Origin: Bacteroidales bacterium
Lineage (GTDB): Bacteria > Bacteroidota > Bacteroidia > Bacteroidales > UBA932
Direction: 5' to 3'
NCBI GenBank assembly: GCA_017429475.1
Contig: JAFROX010000007.1
Span: forward strand, 1 to 60,889
DNA length: 60,889 nt
Shown here: in pieces, positions 5,967 to 19,884 of the stretch
Layout of the letters: every line of letters begins with the position of its first letter
How positions within the stretch are numbered: the first letter of the stretch is position 1
Program-made: the position numbers and the translations under genes
Notes under the pieces: model-generated
Told to the model about the DNA's origin: nothing
Seen by the model: only the letters and a program-made list of their open reading frames with translations
Database searches by the model: none

Positions 5967-6647
5967 ATGGATACCAGCCGCATCCGCCTTGTCGCCGTGG
6001 ACGCCGACGACACGCTCTGGGATTGCCAGTCCTATTTCACCGCCGCCGAGCAGGTGTTCAAGGAGACCCTGCTCCCGTACGGGCCGCCGGAGGAGACCTT
6101 CGCGCAGCTCACCCGGCGGGAACTGGCCAACATGGATTCCCTCGGCTTCGGCGGCAAGGCCTTTACCCTGTCCCTGGTGGAAACGGCCATCTCCTATGGC
6201 GCCTCCACCGGTGAAATCCACACCATCCTGCAGGCGGGGCGGGCGGTCATCGACCTGCCCGCCACGCCGCTGGACGGCGTCGTGGAGACGCTGGAGGCCC
6301 TTCGCGGCCGCTACCGGCTCATTCTCTACACCAAGGGGGACCTGCAGGAGCAGACGGCGAAAATCCGCCGCAGCGGCCTTGCTCCGCTCTTCGACGACGT
6401 CCTCATCGTCGCCCACAAGGACGAATCGTCCTACCGGCGCCTCTGCGGGGCGAACGGCTGCCCGCCGGAGGCGTTCCTGATGGTCGGCAATTCCTTCCGC
6501 TCCGACATCGACCCGGTCCTCCGGATCGGCGGCAGCGGCATCCATATCCCTTTCCACCTCTCCTGGGCCTACGAGGAGGTAGAAGAATATGACCACCCCC
6601 GCCTGGCGAAGGTGGCCACATTCAAGGAAATCCTCCGGTTCCTCTAA
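5967..6647 (+). CDS. HAD-superfamily phosphatase
   Basis: 226 residues. HAD motif I is VDADDTLWD (Asp nucleophile at about 10 and Asp at 12), followed by a helical cap, motif II around LILYTKGD, and a motif III/IV region with the conserved Lys and acidic pair in VGNSFRSDIDP. This is a cytoplasmic phosphoglycolate-phosphatase-like (subfamily IA) hydrolase; the substrate cannot be told. Its stop codon overlaps the stop of the convergent GDPD-GH31 gene by four bases. Confidence 0.85.
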   Translation: MDTSRIRLVAVDADDTLWDCQSYFTAAEQVFKETLLPYGPPEETFAQLTRRELANMDSLGFGGKAFTLSLVETAISYGASTGEIHTILQAGRAVIDLPATPLDGVVETLEALRGRYRLILYTKGDLQEQTAKIRRSGLAPLFDDVLIVAHKDESSYRRLCGANGCPPEAFLMVGNSFRSDIDPVLRIGGSGIHIPFHLSWAYEEVEEYDHPRLAKVATFKEILRFL

Positions 6648-9600
6648 TAGACGCGGATCTGCGCCTTGAGCTTCGTCTTGAAGTCCGGCGTCAGGTTCTG
6701 GGCGTCGATTTCCCGGTCCAACTCATCCACGTTGATCATTTCCAGGTACTTCCCGGCATGGAAGCAGTCCTCCAGGATGAAACTGGAGCACTGCGCCAGG
6801 TGCATGATCGGCTGCGGGAGCGTCTTCCACGGGTCTTCCGTCGCCGCGAAGACCATCTTGGATTCCGGCGTCAGGATCATCATCCGCTTGATCATGGCCT
6901 TCTTGCCGCGCAGCAAAGACTCGTGCGTGGCGGCATAGTCGTCATACGTCGCCTCGAGGGTGACCGCCTGGGCGGCGTCCGCCTCGGCGAGATAGATGAC
7001 GGCCGCGAGTTCCTTCCCGTCATAGCCCCATACGCTCTTGCCCTCCTTCGCCTCTTTCCCGGCGAAACGGGAGTAGGGGACTTCGGCGCCGTTGACGCGG
7101 ACGGAGACGGGGGCGAAGACCCCTTCGAGCACGACGCGGAGCGTGCGCTTCGTGTCGATGCCGAGGTAGGAGCCCTCCCGGGCGCCGACGGTCAGTTTCA
7201 GCGCCGCGGCGTCGGATTCCTTGGCCACATGGGTGACGGCATAGTCGGTATGGTAGGCCTGCGTCGATCCATCGTCCTCATAGACAGTCGTTTCTGACTT
7301 TCCGTGGCCCGGGGCGACGTAGAGGACGAGGGTGTTGTCCTTGTCCTGGAGGGACGCGATTTCGGGGGAAGCCATCGGGATGATGGCACCGGCCTTGACG
7401 AAATACGGGTTCTCGTCGATGGTGTACTCGAGGTCCGCCGTCGTGCCGCCCTTGTACATCATGCCGGTCGCGGCGTCGTACCAGTCGTTCCCGGCGGGGA
7501 ACCACATGCTGCGCGGGGCGAGGCCGGTGACCTTGTCCACCGGCGTGCAGACCGTCGTGGCGAGGATGTCGTCACCGAAGAGGAATTCTTCCTTCCAGGT
7601 GTAGGCATTTTCCTCTTCCGGATACGCATAATAGAGGGGCCGGCACATGGAAATGCCTGTATCATAGGTCTGCCGGGCCGCGCCGTAGATGTACGGGGAA
7701 AGGTCGTAGCGGAGCCGGATGGCCTTGCGCATGGCGTCGAAATGGTCCGGGAAGACCCAGAAGCGCTTCTCCATGGTCATGTCCTTGGTGGAGTGGGTCT
7801 TGAAGATCGGGGTGAAGACGCCGCTCTGGAGCCAGCGCGTGTAGAGTTCGGGATCCGTTTCCTTCACGCCGGCGGGCTGCATGTGGCCGCCGATATCATG
7901 GCCCCAGTAGCCGTAACCGACGTTGGAAGAGGTGGCGGTGAACCAGGGAAGGCAGGAGAGGACCTTCCAACTGGCCTGGGTATCGCCGGAGAAGCCGATC
8001 TGGTACCGGTGGCTCCCGATGCCGCCCCAGCGGTGATAGATGATCGGGCGGCGGGCATACACGCCCTCGTGCGCGCTCTGGCGGACGATGTCGTTGAAGA
8101 AGGTGTAGTTGAGCCAGAAGGTGTTGGAGAGGCCTTCCGTGTAGTTGCTGAGCCGCCACTGCTGCCAGTCGAGCCACCAGAAATCGACGCCCTGCCGCTC
8201 GAAGGGACGGATGACGGAATTGAAGTAGGCGTCGGCCCAGGCTTCCTGGTCGATGCGGAAAGGGACCGGGGCCTTGGTGCCGTCCTCCTTGATGTAACCC
8301 TTGGGTCCGTCGTAGTCGGAAGTCCTTGACAGATAGTCTTTCACGAAGCGGTCATAGGGCTCTTCATACGGCTGGATGCCGGAGGCGGGGTGGAGGTTGA
8401 GGGTCGTTTTGAGACCGAGGTCGTGGAGGTCCTGCAGGTGGTTGGCCGGGTTCGGGAAGAGGGTGGCATTCCAGGTGTAGCCGGTCCAGCCGATGCGCTG
8501 GCCGAATTCATCCTTGGGCGGGTTCGAGCGCCGGAGCGACCAGGTCTCGTGCCAGTCCATGTCGAGGACCATCACGTCGATCGGGATGCCGAAGGAGCGG
8601 ATCTGCTTGCCGAGGTCCACGAATTCGAAGTCGGAATACTGCCAGAACCGGCACCACCAGTAGCCGAGGGAATACTTCGGCGGCAGGGGAATGCGCCCGG
8701 CCACCTTCGTGAAATCGCTGACGGCAGCCTTGTAATCATGGCCGTAGGCGAACATGTAGAGGTCCTGCCGGTCGCCGGCCGGGCGGTTGGCAACCCAGTT
8801 CTTCCAGTCGCTCTTCACGGGGACGAACACCTGGCGGGTGCTCTCGTCGATGACGGCCCAGCCGTCACGGGAAGCGACGCCTTTGTCGAAGGGATCCCGT
8901 GTCTTGGTGTTGTCACCCGAATAGCCGTCGAGCGTGCGGGTCGTGCCGAGCAGGTTTCCGCTGTCGTCCATGCCGGGATGCCAGGTGACCTCCTTGGAAA
9001 CGGGCCTGCCCTTCTTGTCGGTACCCGCGGGGAGGCTGAATGCAACGGACAGGTTCCCTTCGTCGAACTTGCCGTCGCCTTTGTAGGTCAGGGTCACATC
9101 GGCGGTCCTGATGGTGACTTTCTTCCCGGAGCGGCTGACCTTGAAGGCCGGGACGGGCAGCCGGCGGTTCACGATGCCGAGCGTCGCCCGGTCCTCGAAC
9201 AGCCCGTCCTCCGCCCATTCCATCCGGATCAGCCGGGAAGTCAGGACGGTGAAGCGGGCGTTGCCGGCCGTGACGACGGCGCTGGGGTTGGCCAGCGGGT
9301 CATCCGTCACGGCAGGGATGTTGCGAAGCTCCTGTTCTCCAAGGATCTGGCGGACGAGTCCGGGCTCATTGGTCGTGATACAGTCCACGCCGAGGCCGAT
9401 CATCGCGCGGATGTCCTCCTCCCGGTCCACGGTCCAGACATTGACGCTCATGCCGAGGTCATGGGCTTCCGCGACCCACTCGGGATGCTTGTAGAAGTTC
9501 TTGTAGTGGTAGTCGATGCCGTTGATGCCTTTGGCGTGGAGCGCTGCCGGGGCGATGTCGCCGTCGAGGTACTGGACCGTAAAGCCGGGGGCCTTGGTGA

Positions 9601-10117
9601 CCAGCTGTTCGCAGATATTCATGCTGAAGGAGATGAAGATCGCCCGGGCCGGGTCGAAGAGCCCGTGCGCCTTCAGCGCGGCGATGGTCTTGTCGGTCAG
9701 CCGGTCCTCGCGCGCCTTGTCCTTCTGTTTCTTCAATTCGACGACGAGGACGGTCTCCGGTGCCTTTTCGCCCTGGGCGAGGTATTCGTCCAGGGTCGGG
9801 ACCGGCTCGCCGTCCTTCAGGCGGAAGCCCTGGAACGCCGCGTGGGGATTGTCCCAGATCCGGACCCCTTCGTGGTTGTTGTCGTGATGGACCAGGACAA
9901 TGTCGTCGCTGGTCAGCTGGAGGTCGAACTCGCTGCCCCACAGGTTCTTTTCCTGGGCCGCCCGGAGGGACGCGATGGAGTTCTGGGCCCCTTGGGCCGC
10001 CTCTGATTTCCAGTCGCCGCGGTGCGCGGCAATCTGTACCTTGTGCTGGCCGGAAGCCGCGCATGCGCCGAGAAGCGCCGCCGCGACAAGGGCCGTTTTC
10101 CGGAGAGAAAGGATCAT
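6644..10117 (-). CDS. Secreted GDPD-GH31 fusion enzyme
   Basis: A single 1157-residue frame. Residues 1-23 are a signal peptide. About 28-260 form a glycerophosphodiester phosphodiesterase: catalytic His in AAHRGDW, SEFDLQLT metal ligands, VLVHHD second catalytic His, VVELKKQ metal Glu, NVWTVD. From about 285 to 970 is a glycoside hydrolase family 31 enzyme: N-terminal beta domain, VMVLDMDWHETW, nucleophile region DFWWLDWQQW, acid/base region GFSGDTQASW, and KTHSTKD. Then come beta domains, and a C-terminal piece of about 100 residues (MMILTPESKMV) that I cannot assign. GH31 enzymes cleave alpha-linked sugars; the WLDWQ form is seen in atypical subfamilies, possibly alpha-N-acetylgalactosaminidases. 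GDPD cleaves glycerophosphodiesters. A -7 element TATATTTG lies at 10167-10174. Confidence 0.9.
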   Translation of the reverse strand: MILSLRKTALVAAALLGACAASGQHKVQIAAHRGDWKSEAAQGAQNSIASLRAAQEKNLWGSEFDLQLTSDDIVLVHHDNNHEGVRIWDNPHAAFQGFRLKDGEPVPTLDEYLAQGEKAPETVLVVELKKQKDKAREDRLTDKTIAALKAHGLFDPARAIFISFSMNICEQLVTKAPGFTVQYLDGDIAPAALHAKGINGIDYHYKNFYKHPEWVAEAHDLGMSVNVWTVDREEDIRAMIGLGVDCITTNEPGLVRQILGEQELRNIPAVTDDPLANPSAVVTAGNARFTVLTSRLIRMEWAEDGLFEDRATLGIVNRRLPVPAFKVSRSGKKVTIRTADVTLTYKGDGKFDEGNLSVAFSLPAGTDKKGRPVSKEVTWHPGMDDSGNLLGTTRTLDGYSGDNTKTRDPFDKGVASRDGWAVIDESTRQVFVPVKSDWKNWVANRPAGDRQDLYMFAYGHDYKAAVSDFTKVAGRIPLPPKYSLGYWWCRFWQYSDFEFVDLGKQIRSFGIPIDVMVLDMDWHETWSLRRSNPPKDEFGQRIGWTGYTWNATLFPNPANHLQDLHDLGLKTTLNLHPASGIQPYEEPYDRFVKDYLSRTSDYDGPKGYIKEDGTKAPVPFRIDQEAWADAYFNSVIRPFERQGVDFWWLDWQQWRLSNYTEGLSNTFWLNYTFFNDIVRQSAHEGVYARRPIIYHRWGGIGSHRYQIGFSGDTQASWKVLSCLPWFTATSSNVGYGYWGHDIGGHMQPAGVKETDPELYTRWLQSGVFTPIFKTHSTKDMTMEKRFWVFPDHFDAMRKAIRLRYDLSPYIYGAARQTYDTGISMCRPLYYAYPEEENAYTWKEEFLFGDDILATTVCTPVDKVTGLAPRSMWFPAGNDWYDAATGMMYKGGTTADLEYTIDENPYFVKAGAIIPMASPEIASLQDKDNTLVLYVAPGHGKSETTVYEDDGSTQAYHTDYAVTHVAKESDAAALKLTVGAREGSYLGIDTKRTLRVVLEGVFAPVSVRVNGAEVPYSRFAGKEAKEGKSVWGYDGKELAAVIYLAEADAAQAVTLEATYDDYAATHESLLRGKKAMIKRMMILTPESKMVFAATEDPWKTLPQPIMHLAQCSSFILEDCFHAGKYLEMINVDELDREIDAQNLTPDFKTKLKAQIRVY

Positions 10118-10572: not shown

Positions 10573-11010
10573 TTAAAGTGCAGATAGAACTGTTCCATCT
10601 GCAAGGATGCTGATCTGTTTGGTGGAAAAAGGTGTTTCTTGTTTGTATTCCACCATGTAGTATGCTGCGGCTCCGTTTGATTGCTCAAACAGGTAGACAT
10701 CATCTATTTTACGATTGCTATATTTGCGTGCCGTTTCCATAACGGGTACCGGGACCTCATAGATGGACATTCTCGTTCTGGAACGCAGCCAGGTGCCAGT
10801 ACTGTCGAATTGAACATGCTTTTCGTGCTGATCGTGATAGAAATCGGCCGTAAAAGTGGAGATTTGTCTACTCCATTCAACCTCGATGGCGCCAGGAAAC
10901 ATCGTTCCAAAGGCACTGAAGACTTCTTCCGGAGCTTGCTCTATCCTCTGCTTGCACCCCGTGAAAAGGGAAGCCATTATGACTAAAGCAAATAGGAGCA
11001 TCTTTTTCAT
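10573..11010 (-). CDS. PepSY-like lipoprotein
   Basis: 145 residues with a lipoprotein signal (MKKMLLFALVIMASLFTGC, Cys at 19). The rest matches the Bacteroidota PepSY-like family once named putative beta-lactamase-inhibitor-like: PEEVFSAFGTMFPGAIEVEW at the start and repeated two-strand units such as ADFYHDQHEKHVQF and YYMVEYKQET. Such proteins are periplasmic or outer-membrane-attached and of unknown role. It is divergent from the Na/Pi transporter-regulator, whose candidate operator lies between the two starts, so it is a possible target of that regulator. Confidence 0.75.
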   Translation of the reverse strand: MKKMLLFALVIMASLFTGCKQRIEQAPEEVFSAFGTMFPGAIEVEWSRQISTFTADFYHDQHEKHVQFDSTGTWLRSRTRMSIYEVPVPVMETARKYSNRKIDDVYLFEQSNGAAAYYMVEYKQETPFSTKQISILADGTVLSAL

Positions 11011-11057: not shown

Positions 11058-11098
11058 TTACAATGGCATCTGATGCGGTTAAAATTCAGTTACAATTG
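11058..11098. promoter_or_regulatory. Candidate operator: three phased TTAnAAT repeats
   Basis: TTACAAT at 11058-11064, TTAAAAT at 11079-11085 and TTACAAT at 11090-11096. The last two are in direct orientation with a 4-base gap, an 11-base period, which is the geometry of PhoB/OmpR-type boxes. The first lies 21 bases (two helical turns) before the second. They sit just upstream of the -33 element of the gene that itself encodes an OmpR-type DNA-binding domain. Binding is inference from spacing and position. Confidence 0.4.
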
Positions 11099-11108
11099 AT
11101 TTGACGCC

Positions 11109-11139
11109 TTGAGAGAATCGACCCCGGAGTGTATCTTTA
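11109..11139 (+). promoter_or_regulatory. Promoter of the Na/Pi transporter-regulator
   Basis: TTG at 11109-11111, 20-base spacer, TATCTTTA at 11132-11139, a good Bacteroidota-type promoter 18 bases before the ATG at 11158. Confidence 0.6.
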
Positions 11140-11157
11140 CACTGAATTTTATTGATT

Positions 11158-13119
11158 ATGCTGATTGTATTGAAACTCCTTGGCTCTATCGCCATCCTGA
11201 TATTCGGTATGAAAATGACCAGCGAGGCCTTGCAGAAAATGGCCGGTCCACAGCTTCGTCATTTGTTTGGAGCGATGACTGGAAATCGTTTCTCCGGTGT
11301 GGCCACCGGTGCTTTGATTACTGTAGCCGTACAGTCATCGTCGGCAACAACCGTGATGACGGTGTCCTTCGTGAATGCAGCGTTGCTTACCTTGACGCAG
11401 GCAATATCGGTTATTATGGGCGCCAATATCGGCACCACGCTTACAGCGTGGATTCTTTCGGCTGGTTTCTCTTTCAATATCGTCAATATCGTCTGGCCTG
11501 TTCTGGTCGTCGGTATCGCTTTTATTCAACTCGGAAGGCATCGGTATTTCGGCGACTTCCTGATTGGCCTGGGTTTCTTGCTCTATGCGATGGTCCTTCT
11601 GAAGAGCACAGGGGTGGAGATGGATCTGGCCAGCAAACCTGCCGTCGTTGATTTCTTCTCCAGTTTCAAGACCAATTACGCCACCATCCTGCTTTTCCTG
11701 CTCATTGGCACTATCCTTACCGCTATACTCCAGAGTTCTGCCGCGCTGATGGCCATTACGATGGTCCTTTGCGCCACGGGAGCCATTTCCATCTATCAGG
11801 GTATCGCGCTGGTCATGGGTGAGAACATCGGCACCACGTCCACGGCCAATCTGGCGGCTCTGAATGCAAACACACAGGCCCGACGTACGGCAATGGCACA
11901 TCTGGTGTTCAACGTGTTCGGTGTTATCTGGATGCTCATTGTTTTCTTCCCTTTTGTGAGGATGGTCTGCGGCATCGTTGGGCTCGATCCCGAAGCGCCA
12001 CAGCAAGATACCACGTTGCTTTCCTTCACGCTGGCGGCTTTCCATACCGGATTCAATGTCATCAATACAGCTCTCTTGATTTGGTTCATCCCGCAGATTG
12101 AAAAGCTGGTTTGCAAGATTGTCCGGCCCCGCAAGTCTGACGAGGAGGATGAATTCCGCCTTCAATATATCCGCGGCGGAATTATGAAAACACCGGAAAT
12201 CTCCGTGCTTCAGGCGCAGAAAGAGATTGTCGTTTATGGAGAAAAGACTCAGCATATGTTCGCGCTGGTCCGGGAACTTTATGCTGCGAAAGACGAGCAG
12301 AGTTTCTCCAGACTTTATGACCGCATCGAGAAGGGAGAGGAAGGCAGCGACCGGATGGAGAACGAGATTGGCCGATACCTGGGAGATCTCGGGTCAGCCC
12401 ATCTGTCCGATGATACGAAAGAGATGATCCGGGCGATGCTCCGGCAGATCGGGGAACTGGAGTCCGTGGGTGACAGCTGCTTCAACCTGGCCCGTATCCT
12501 TCGGCGGAAGAGGAACAACAAGATTGAGTTTTCCGAGCAGCAGGATTCTGGTATCCAGGGGATGTTCTCGCTGGTTAATGAAGCCCTTTCCCGGATGAAT
12601 GTCCTTCTTTCCGGACGCAAGGAAGAACTGGACCTGGCGCTGTCCGAAGACATCGAACGCAGGATCAATGCCTGCCGCAATAAACTCAAACAGCAGAATA
12701 TTGATAGCCTGGACGACAATCTTTACGGTTACGACAAGGGGACCGTGTATGCAGACCTCGTCAGTGAATGCGAAAAGACGGGAGACTACATCATCAATGT
12801 CGTGGAAGCCAGGCTCGGCGCGGTCCGAAATGGAATCCGATATCTGGGCATCCAGATGGATACTGATGCCAAGAAGGTGACCGTGGACGGAGCAGATGTC
12901 TCCTTCACAAAGACCGAGTATGAACTCTTGAAACTCTTTCTTGAGAACCGGGGAAAGGTGTTTTCACGGGAGCAGCTGCTGTCAGCTGTGTGGCCGGATG
13001 ATGTCATAGTCACGCCCCGCACGGTGGACGTGAACATAACCCGCATTCGAAAGAAAATCGGTCCTTATGGAGATGCTCTTGTCGCCAAGGCTGGGTTCGG
13101 GTATTCTTTTCAGGAATAA
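11158..13119 (+). CDS. Na/Pi cotransporter-PhoU-OmpR-type wHTH fusion
   Basis: 653 residues in one uninterrupted frame, starting at the first ATG after the promoter. Residues 1-315 are a Na+/phosphate symporter of the NptA/PNaS family, with both inverted repeat signatures: QSSSATT at 59-65 with GANIGTT at 88-94, and QSSAALMAIT at 192-201 with GENIGTTSTA at 221-230. Residues about 350-556 form a cytoplasmic PhoU-like helical domain, usual for the family. The unusual part is 565-653: a complete winged-helix DNA-binding domain of the OmpR/PhoB class (FTKTEYELLKLF, SREQLLSAVW, RTVDVNITRIRKKIG, AKAGFGYSFQE). No receiver domain is present. It may be a membrane-tethered one-component regulator that couples phosphate transport to transcription. 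Function is inferred from domains. Confidence 0.93.
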   Translation: MLIVLKLLGSIAILIFGMKMTSEALQKMAGPQLRHLFGAMTGNRFSGVATGALITVAVQSSSATTVMTVSFVNAALLTLTQAISVIMGANIGTTLTAWILSAGFSFNIVNIVWPVLVVGIAFIQLGRHRYFGDFLIGLGFLLYAMVLLKSTGVEMDLASKPAVVDFFSSFKTNYATILLFLLIGTILTAILQSSAALMAITMVLCATGAISIYQGIALVMGENIGTTSTANLAALNANTQARRTAMAHLVFNVFGVIWMLIVFFPFVRMVCGIVGLDPEAPQQDTTLLSFTLAAFHTGFNVINTALLIWFIPQIEKLVCKIVRPRKSDEEDEFRLQYIRGGIMKTPEISVLQAQKEIVVYGEKTQHMFALVRELYAAKDEQSFSRLYDRIEKGEEGSDRMENEIGRYLGDLGSAHLSDDTKEMIRAMLRQIGELESVGDSCFNLARILRRKRNNKIEFSEQQDSGIQGMFSLVNEALSRMNVLLSGRKEELDLALSEDIERRINACRNKLKQQNIDSLDDNLYGYDKGTVYADLVSECEKTGDYIINVVEARLGAVRNGIRYLGIQMDTDAKKVTVDGADVSFTKTEYELLKLFLENRGKVFSREQLLSAVWPDDVIVTPRTVDVNITRIRKKIGPYGDALVAKAGFGYSFQE

Positions 13120-13378: not shown

Positions 13379-13417
13379 TACTAAAATAGCTTGGCATTGA
13401 GCCAAGCTATTTTAGTA
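13379..13417 (-). terminator. Terminator of tRNA-Leu
   Basis: TACTAAAATAGCTTGGC and GCCAAGCTATTTTAGTA form a 17-base perfect stem starting at the tRNA 3' end. The arm supplies a TTTT-containing tail on the minus strand. Confidence 0.75.
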
Positions 13418-13500
13418 CCCGGAGCCGGGGTCGAACCGGCACAGCCATTACAGCCACTGGTGTTTGAGACCAGCGCGTCTACCGATTCCGCCATCCGGGC
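13416..13500 (-). tRNA. tRNA-Leu (CAA)
   Basis: 85 bases with a long variable arm, as expected for Leu. Acceptor GCCCGGA pairs with TCCGGGT, anticodon loop CTCAAAC gives CAA, and the T arm reads GCCGGTTCGACCCCGGC. Confidence 0.94.
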
Positions 13501-18798: not shown

Positions 18799-19884
18799 TC
18801 AGAAACGCACGTAATACTCGAACCAGATTTCGTTGAACTTCTGGCCGGTGGGCTTGTTGTCGTTGTAGCGGTATTCAAGCTGGAACATCAGGTTCTTGTG
18901 GAGGCGGAACTGGGGAGCGATGGAATAGATGACGGATTGACTGTCCGTAGTGGCGTTGTCACGATACGCGTCATATTTGAGGAATACCTTAAACCAGTCG
19001 ACCACGGGCACACCGACAGTTGCATAGTATGCATCTGCGATACCGGAATCGGTTGCAGTTGGATATAACTTGCCGGTCGACGGGTCGATTGAAGAAGCCT
19101 TATATCCCTTTGAGTGGACATATTCGGCCCTGGCAGACCAGTTGTTGTGTTCGTACTTTGCGCCGAAGGCATAACGCTTGCGGTCGACCGTTACCTTGCC
19201 GTCCGACCAGTCACCATCCCATGCAAAAGCGCCTATATAGAGATCTTTTATCGGTTGAATCTGGATTGTTCCGATAATGTCTTTCCTGGCATTATTGTCG
19301 GCCCTGTTGATACCGTTACCGTTATATAAGCCCAGCTGGTAGTGGATAAGCCTATGCTGGTCCTCTCCTACAGGGAACAGGTCTCCTTGTATTTGAATGC
19401 CCAAGTCACGCCCTCCCATGGAAACCTCTCCGCAGCGGTCCCCCATTCCGGCCAACTTCTTGATGGCCTGGGAGTAATCACCGACGCCCACGTCCCAGGG
19501 ATTCATGGGGTTCTCAAAGGTGAAGGCACGCTTGAATTCACCCATCTTGATGCTGAATTCCTTGTATCTGGCCCATTCCAGATAAAAATCCTTGACGTGC
19601 GGGGTACCGTTGATTTCAAACTGAATACGATAGTTGAAATCGCGCAGGACGGTTCCGTCGACATAAGTACGGATAAGCCGTACGCCCAGGCCCGGGCCGT
19701 TGTTTGCGCCTTCTTGGCTTGAATACTTGTATGACCCGATGATAAAGGCACCGAATTTAGGCTTGCTCGCAAAATCCGTCAACTTATAGCCATATTGGGG
19801 AGAAAAATCCTCTTCCTCTTGGGCGAATGCGGTGAATGACAGCAACAAAGAGCCAATCAATAATAAAAATCTCTTCATCTTCAT
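18799..19884 (-). CDS. OprP/OprO-like outer-membrane porin
   Basis: 361 residues with a cleavable signal peptide ([20 protein letters not shown]). The mature protein is a run of amphipathic beta strands ([39 protein letters not shown]) ending with the outer-membrane C-terminal aromatic pattern FEYYVRF. The [15 protein letters not shown] segment is typical of the phosphate-selective porin O/P family of Bacteroidota. The substrate is uncertain; the neighbouring Dcu transporter suggests a role with anions such as dicarboxylates. A -7 element TATATTTG lies at 19924-19931 (minus). Confidence 0.85.

What the first reader, a model, noticed from the sequence alone, without database searches (positions are those of the whole stretch)
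11158..13119. Phosphate symporter that carries its own OmpR/PhoB-type DNA-binding domain
One uninterrupted frame joins a Na+/Pi symporter (both QSS repeats intact), a PhoU-like domain and a complete C-terminal winged helix (residues about 565-653) with the recognition-helix segment RTVDVNITRIRKKIG. There is no receiver domain and no histidine kinase nearby. Established: wHTH domains of this class normally sit on response regulators, and membrane-tethered versions (CadC, ToxR) exist with other sensors. Inference: transport flux or PhoU state may directly control DNA binding, giving a one-protein phosphate-sensing system that replaces PhoR-PhoB.
Basis: partly seen in the sequence, partly recalled or inferred. 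Interest (0 to 1): 0.9.

Follow-up and report, generated by a model that had tools for sequence, protein, structure and literature searches.

The report
Phosphate pump with built-in gene switch
In many uncultured gut Bacteroidales, a sodium-driven phosphate pump carries, in one protein, the DNA-binding half of the classic phosphate regulator PhoB, and its own gene bears the matching landing site, so the pump probably switches its own gene on when phosphate is short.

Summary
The fusion is real and conserved. One frame (11158-13119) encodes a Na+/Pi symporter (NptA type), a PhoU domain and the DNA-binding half of Bacteroidota PhoB. Full-length fusions occur in 10 of 26 genus genomes, 30 of 299 family genomes, and 74 of 80 loci from named records, including Prevotella aff. 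ruminicola strain Tc2-24. Relatives keep nptA, phoB and a histidine kinase as adjacent separate genes; on the transporter tree these operons lie among the fusions, so fusion probably happened more than once. In the window's genus the 10 fusion genomes each hold exactly one OmpR/PhoB-type winged helix, the fusion itself; none has PhoB or PstB over cut-off. The fused gene carries an 11-bp direct repeat at a fixed distance from its -7 element. The same repeat, with matching spacing, precedes pst genes in 12 of 20 loci of PhoB-bearing relatives: a Pho box. Other exact sites in the genus do not exceed a control, which suggests an autoregulatory loop rather than a regulon-wide replacement of PhoR-PhoB. 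DNA binding and phosphate gating are inferred, not shown. No description of this architecture turned up in the nine paper searches made.

The parts
11158..13119 (+). fusion gene: NptA-type Na+/Pi symporter + PhoU + PhoB effector domain, 653 aa (alternative start TTG 11152)
   Evidence: full length in 30 of 299 family genomes and 74 of 80 named-record loci
11158..12147 (+). membrane symporter part, residues 1-330, two QSS repeats (11332-11340, 11731-11739)
   Evidence: Pfam PF02690, two stretches; TIGR00704 1-325; QSS positions, invariant in A3
12175..12825 (+). PhoU region, residues 340-556 (Pfam core 361-447), with three ExxxD motifs; no hydrophobic segment, presumably cytoplasmic
   Evidence: motifs and hydropathy; invariant columns
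12829..13116 (+). PhoB-type winged-helix DNA-binding domain, residues 558-653; recognition helix RTVDVNITRIRKK at 13018-13056
   Evidence: aligns with E. coli PhoB DNA-binding domain chains 1gxp and 1qqi
11078..11094 (-). Pho box: TGTAACTGAATTTTAAC, two TKTAAC half-sites 11 bp apart
   Evidence: same motif type before pst genes in 12 of 20 loci of PhoB-bearing relatives
11109..11139 (+). putative promoter: TTG at 11109-11111 (-33), TATCTTTA at 11132-11139 (-7, one mismatch), 37 bp downstream of the box
   Evidence: sequence; spacing class kept in 48 of 50 box-bearing fused genes. The -33/-7 consensus is recalled

Best explanation
It is a self-regulating phosphate transporter. An ancestral operon nptA-phoB-histidine kinase lost the nptA stop, the PhoB receiver and the kinase. 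The PhoB DNA-binding domain became the C-terminus of the transporter, directly after its PhoU domain (supported by comparison). When phosphate is plentiful, the PhoU domain, reading transporter occupancy or internal phosphate, holds the winged helices inactive. When phosphate is short, neighbouring subunits present two winged helices that bind the tandem 11-bp Pho box upstream of the gene and activate its promoter, so the transporter makes more of itself (inferred). Because the factor is anchored in the membrane, its own gene, tethered there by co-translational insertion, may be its natural target (inferred).
For: Conserved architecture: 30 of 299 family genomes, 33 genes; 74 of 80 named-record loci; strain Tc2-24 (L163). 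Precursor: nptA-phoB-kinase gene rows in G212, G235, G253, G278, G329; Pfam checked phoB and kinase of L197 and L198 and phoB of L199, the others rest on tblastn and reading. Purifying selection on the winged helix. In the genus Trans_reg_C occurs in 10 of 26 genomes, once each, always the fusion. PhoB over cut-off: 0 of 26 in the genus, 183 of 299 in the family; of the 30 fusion genomes only G221, judged from its E-value since its row was not listed. PstB: 51 of 299, 0 of the 30. Box: of 76 deduplicated fused genes 50 have it at 2 mismatches or fewer; 46 of 52 with a canonical recognition helix, 4 of 24 with a degenerate one; unfused 1 of 13. Spacing to the -7 element is kept (36-39 bp minus, 31-34 plus) in 48 of 50, about 2.7 expected. 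Independent check: 20 pst loci of relatives, 19 boxes at one mismatch or fewer against 12 reversed-pattern controls, 17 against 5 intergenic, 4 against 0 exact; spacing 32 bp in 6 of 6 plus-oriented loci. S. aureus: the PhoU domain of NptA contributes to control of PhoPR (PMC13170248, passages).
Against: No binding, expression or transport was measured; no structure could be predicted. The box consensus was read by eye from these promoters, and the spacing windows were set; the pst test is independent, the box/helix count is not. Controlled for relatedness the box/helix association rests on 5-7 independent pairs and is not significant. Six canonical-helix fusions lack the box, as do two of three operons tested; 8 of 20 pst loci show none before a pst gene. 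G021, a genus genome without any Trans_reg_C, has an exact site before an NptA-like frame (L239). PhoB coexists with a fusion locus in G221, G306, G324 and G329, and G244 and G246 have strong PhoB-model matches below cut-off (E 1e-71 and 6e-71). Several lineages lack the winged helix, so it is dispensable. In clades B and P and some second copies dN/dS of the winged helix exceeds that of the membrane part. One clade of all fused winged helices is not rejected (p 0.221).
Confidence: 0.7

Rival explanations
1. The fusion binds its own promoter but as a brake: DNA-bound transporter represses its gene when phosphate is plentiful, a negative loop.
For: Binding, box and autoregulation evidence is the same.
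Against: The box lies upstream of the -33 element at a spacing also seen in pst promoters of PhoB-bearing relatives; in B. fragilis PhoB binds the pst promoter fragment and its mutant shows only a trace of pstC expression at low phosphate (PMC3547664, passages), so this looks like an activating geometry.
Confidence: 0.12
2. The DNA-binding domain is cut from the membrane by a protease and acts as a soluble factor.
For: Regulated proteolysis is a known way to activate membrane-anchored regulators (recalled); the joint between PhoU and winged helix is a short linker.
Against: Linker sequences differ between clades; no test for cleavage motifs was made.
Confidence: 0.08
3. The winged helix no longer binds DNA and is a relic or a protein-protein module.
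For: Several fusions have degenerate recognition helices and no box (for example the second copies of G262 and G265); some lineages lack the domain.
Against: In the window's close relatives the helix is canonical, dN/dS is low, and box and spacing are kept although no other Trans_reg_C protein was found in the genome.
Confidence: 0.08
4. Assembly-made chimera.
For: The window and most relatives are metagenome assemblies.
Against: The same frame occurs as 33 genes in 30 genomes of the family and in a strain genome on a 1-Mb contig (L163).
Confidence: 0.01

Closest known systems
NptA with PhoU domain (Staphylococcus aureus)
   Same: same transporter-PhoU protein; its PhoU domain contributes to control of the PhoB-type system PhoPR (PMC13170248, passages)
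   Different: acts through a separate kinase and regulator; no DNA-binding domain is described for it in the passages seen
PhoB of Bacteroidota (B. fragilis BF1576)
   Same: C-terminal half homologous (NF053854); B. fragilis PhoB binds the pst promoter fragment (PMC3547664, passages), and relatives of the window carry the same box type before pst genes
   Different: has a receiver and works with PhoR; the fusion lacks the receiver and sits in the membrane
CadC/ToxR-type transmembrane transcription regulators
   Same: membrane-anchored OmpR-type winged helix (recalled; review PMC10269533, passages)
   Different: there an N-terminal winged helix, one membrane pass and a periplasmic sensor (recalled); here a multi-pass transporter, PhoU and a C-terminal winged helix
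Rsp of Neisseria gonorrhoeae
   Same: chimera of a two-component sensor and the partner's DNA-binding domain (PMC10269533, passages)
   Different: sensor is the membrane receptor of PilS, not a transporter
CbrA (SLC5 transporter-histidine kinase)
   Same: transporter domain covalently joined to a signalling output (PMC8871633, passages)
   Different: output is a kinase, DNA binding is in a separate protein CbrB; the same review says transport may not be needed for its signalling

Membership tests
NptA-type Na+/Pi symporter | two Na_Pi_cotrans repeats with QSS motifs | tested here: met
   invariant
NptA-type Na+/Pi symporter | sodium-dependent phosphate transport | not testable with these tools
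   needs uptake assay
PhoU domain | Pfam PhoU match and ExxxD motifs (motif role recalled) | tested here: met
   34.1 bits over cut-off 23.5; motifs
PhoB response regulator | OmpR/PhoB-type effector domain | tested here: met
PhoB response regulator | receiver domain with phospho-acceptor | tested here: not met
   no Response_reg match in the protein; only positions 131-225 of the PhoB model matched
PhoB response regulator | binds a Pho box | tested here: inconclusive
   box and pst-like spacing present; binding not measured
PhoR-PhoB two-component system | cognate histidine kinase adjacent | tested here: not met
   downstream are tRNA-Leu 13415-13500 and an alpha-galactosidase; no kinase match at E below 1e-10 in fusion loci of the window's clade; matches in other clades' loci: L065 (G244), L074 (G221, beside a PhoB), L176
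one-component transmembrane transcription regulator | sensor, membrane part and DNA-binding domain in one protein | tested here: met
   (architecture only)
one-component transmembrane transcription regulator | regulates transcription from the membrane | not testable with these tools
   needs reporter and localisation tests

The most novel reading that the evidence does not exclude
A two-component phosphate pathway collapsed, more than once, into a single protein in which an active transporter is its own transcription factor. The pump, still in the membrane, binds and activates its own promoter as its main or only target, making a closed one-gene homeostat in genomes that keep no other OmpR/PhoB-type regulator.
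Probability: 0.5. Interest if true: 0.92.

Novelty: new variant of a known kind. Interest (0 to 1): 0.82.

Why it matters
How PhoU-type proteins pass transporter state to gene control is a long-standing question. Here transporter, PhoU and DNA-binding output are one chain, so the link can be dissected in one purified protein. Recurrent fusions beside surviving intact operons show a possible step-by-step route from a two-component to a one-component system. A natural transporter/transcription factor that may control mainly itself would be a minimal feedback module and a strong test of how membrane-tethered factors find DNA.

Tried and rejected
Assembly artefact: rejected. Canonical E. coli Pho box TGTCA-N6-TGTCA: searched upstream, only sporadic matches; the repeat actually conserved is TKTAAC-N5-TKTAAC. 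Wide regulon: exact sites in the 26 genus genomes were 26 against 22 for the reversed pattern. Five are fused-gene promoters; of the other 21, 16 lie inside called frames and 5 do not (L229, L231, L239, L246, L248), and L239 (G021) lies before an NptA-like frame in a genome without Trans_reg_C, which I cannot explain. One-mismatch sites were 13, 9 and 13 against 18, 12 and 16 controls in G000, G008, G020; 30 of these 35 were read with their neighbours, by eye, without annotation. Single origin of the fusion: not rejected on the 102-column winged-helix alignment (p 0.221, 81 rows); rejected on the transporter part (p 0.031, 56 rows, 3 operons; p 1.6e-5, 45 rows, 5 operons). The groups were named after earlier trees had been seen, and gene exchange is not excluded. 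A possible fusion in another family (G370) was only a tail without a winged helix. Rows dropped: of 132 proteins 100 were kept after removing those over 96.5% identical; the outgroup rows gave misplaced long branches and were replaced; 23 rows were left out of the 81-row tree and further rows of the smaller trees to save time; L106 and L154 had too little upstream sequence for the box table, and the operon starts of G278 and G235 were approximate there. In one search ties hid some -7 elements; one search recounted. PstB scoring covered the best 8 candidates of each genome.

Full report
WHAT IS THERE. The frame at 11158-13119 is open and encodes 653 residues. Pfam gives two Na_Pi_cotrans stretches, a PhoU domain (361-447) and a full-length Trans_reg_C domain (579-651). 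Residues 558-652 match positions 131-225 of the Bacteroidota PhoB model, so the piece is the effector half of PhoB with the receiver missing. QSS motifs of the transporter and ExxxD motifs of PhoU are present. No hydrophobic segment follows residue 335, so PhoU and the winged helix should lie in the cytoplasm (inference). The helix RTVDVNITRIRKK aligns with RTVDVHIRRLRKA of E. coli PhoB in the PDB chains 1gxp and 1qqi.

IT IS CONSERVED. In the genus 10 of 26 genomes carry the full-length fusion. In the family 30 of 299 genomes carry 33 fused genes, in four genus groups; G262, G265 and G292 have two each. A scan of the named genome collection with the last 118 residues gave 80 loci, the cap, so there are more. 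Of these 74 are full-length fused frames. The other six are L111 and L143 (cut by contig ends), L140 (N-terminus in another frame), L148 and L158 (short frames) and L184, a plain PhoB. Many record titles name ruminant hosts; labels are Bacteroidales, Bacteroidia, Prevotella, Prevotellaceae, Bacteroidaceae and one Muribaculaceae. L163 is the strain Prevotella aff. ruminicola Tc2-24 (that it is in culture is inferred from the record title). Among 295 genomes spread over the order, the window's own was the only listed full-length match; how many Prevotella that draw held is not told. dN/dS of the winged helix is 0.03-0.08 in the computable pairs closest to the window, comparable with the rest of the protein; in clades B and P and in second copies it is mostly 0.08-0.21, above the membrane part.

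WHERE IT CAME FROM. In G212, G235, G253, G278 and G329 an unfused nptA is followed at once (overlapping or within about 30 bases) by a complete phoB and then a short histidine kinase gene (Pfam for phoB and kinase of L197 and L198 and for the L199 PhoB). Fusing nptA to the C-terminal half of that phoB gives the observed protein. On the transporter part, fused rows cannot be held together apart from intact operons: p-AU 0.031 with three operons, 1.6e-5 with five. Clade B (G244, G281, G291 and others) is sister to the operons of G235 and G278 with 100/99 support, and the operon of G329 groups with two Prevotella-type fusions (100/99). Since a lost receiver is unlikely to return, at least two independent fusions are the simplest reading. 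The winged-helix tree points the same way but its 102 columns do not reject one origin (p 0.221). Exchange of parts between genes is not excluded, and the groups were chosen after seeing earlier trees.

WHAT ELSE THE GENOMES HAVE. Trans_reg_C, the hallmark of OmpR/PhoB-type regulators, occurs in 10 of 26 genus genomes, exactly once in each, and each time it is this fusion. These include G008 (100% complete) and G020 (99%); the window's own assembly is 80% complete. PhoB passes its cut-off in 0 of 26 genus genomes and 183 of 299 family genomes; of the 30 with the fusion only G221 does, judged from its E-value, while G244 and G246 have strong matches below cut-off. Of 47 genomes reached through named loci (45 with full-length fusions, two with the partial loci L148 and L158), 3 pass: G306, G324, G329; some of the 47 may repeat family genomes. 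PstB passes in 51 of 299, none of the 30. Relatedness is not corrected in these counts.

THE PHO BOX. Upstream of the window gene lies TGTAACTGAATTTTAAC (11078-11094, minus strand), two TKTAAC half-sites one turn apart. Among 76 fused genes deduplicated at 96.5% identity, 50 have the repeat with at most two mismatches within 250 bp. The spacing to the -7 element (TAnnTTTG, up to one mismatch; consensus recalled) falls at 36-39 bp when the box is on the minus strand (20 of 20) and at 31-34 bp on the plus strand (28 of 30), with about 2.7 of 50 expected from other offsets in the same sequences (the windows were set). In the Prevotella-type group the box begins 82-126 bp before the start codon (L169, off the spacing, 136) while the spacing hardly varies. 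Independent test: in 20 pst loci of PhoB-bearing relatives the motif gave 19 hits at one mismatch or fewer against 12 for the reversed pattern, 17 against 5 intergenic, 4 against 0 exact. Twelve of 20 have it before a pst gene (gene start of L272 guessed). The -7 element follows at 32 bp in all six plus-oriented loci, at 37 bp in two of six minus-oriented ones, and at 48, 58 or 59 bp, one or two turns further, in the other four. PhoB of B. fragilis binds the pst promoter fragment and its mutant shows only a trace of pstC expression at low phosphate (PMC3547664, passages). I therefore take the repeat as the Bacteroidales Pho box; in the window's genus the fusion is the only OmpR/PhoB-type protein found that could read it.

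BOX AND HELIX GO TOGETHER. With a canonical recognition helix (11 or more of 13 positions) 46 of 52 deduplicated fused genes have the box; with a degenerate helix 4 of 24. In G262 and G265 the copy with a canonical helix has the box and the copy with a degenerate helix does not. Against this: only 5 to 7 independent comparisons exist on the tree, mostly uninformative, none significant; the consensus was read from these same promoters; two of three operons tested lack the box; and G021, with no Trans_reg_C at all, has an exact site before an NptA-like frame.

HOW IT PROBABLY WORKS. Supported by sequence: architecture, origin from an operon, selection, box, spacing, no other reader found. Inferred: two winged helices of neighbouring subunits bind the tandem half-sites; the position upstream of the -33 element is that of an activator; PhoU couples transporter or phosphate state to DNA binding. 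The last step has a precedent: in S. aureus the PhoU domain of NptA contributes to control of PhoPR (PMC13170248, passages). Exact sites in the genus are 26 against 22 controls, one-mismatch sites in three genomes do not exceed controls, and of the 30 of 35 sites read none but the fused gene's own promoter preceded a gene I recognised as a phosphate gene. So the main target is probably the gene itself.

COMPARISON AND NOVELTY. Known relatives are transporter-kinase fusions such as CbrA (PMC8871633, passages), membrane-anchored regulators and the sensor/DNA-binding chimera Rsp (PMC10269533, passages). I found no description of a transporter fused to a DNA-binding domain of this kind in the listings or the passages read; these cover open PMC papers only, and no supplementary tables were seen. 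I file it as a new variant of one-component membrane regulators, not as PhoB, because the receiver was tested and is absent.

Noticed in passing
window 6644-10117 (-): One 1157-aa frame joins a glycerophosphodiester phosphodiesterase (GDPD) domain to a family 31 glycoside hydrolase, close to the phosphate gene.
   Followed up: no
window 18799-19884 (-): Porin-like protein (Porin_4 match at 25.9 bits, below its cut-off of 27); by eye, from memory, it resembles phosphate-selective porins O/P; about six kilobases from the fusion.
   Followed up: no
window 10573-11010 (-): Divergent 145-aa predicted lipoprotein with no Pfam match; its start is close to the Pho box, which might also serve it.
   Followed up: no
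L259 (G303:C70) 388-988: A phoB gene that reads in two frames in a genome that also has the fusion, beside a kinase gene and a more distant nptA; possibly a decaying phoB or an assembly error.
   Followed up: partly
L239 (G021:C29) 747-763: Exact box-like site just upstream of an NptA-like frame in a genus genome that has neither the fusion nor any Trans_reg_C domain.
   Followed up: no
L075, L076, L088, L089 (G262, G265): Two fused copies per genome, one with a canonical recognition helix and box, one with neither: a possible diverged-target pair.
   Followed up: partly
L065-L073 (clade B): Recognition helices of clade B differ strongly between species while the transporter is conserved, suggesting changing DNA targets or relaxed selection.
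   Followed up: no
G292 loci L084 and L073: A genome of another genus group carries a copy 95% identical to the window's besides its own 57% copy, which suggests gene transfer between genera.
   Followed up: no
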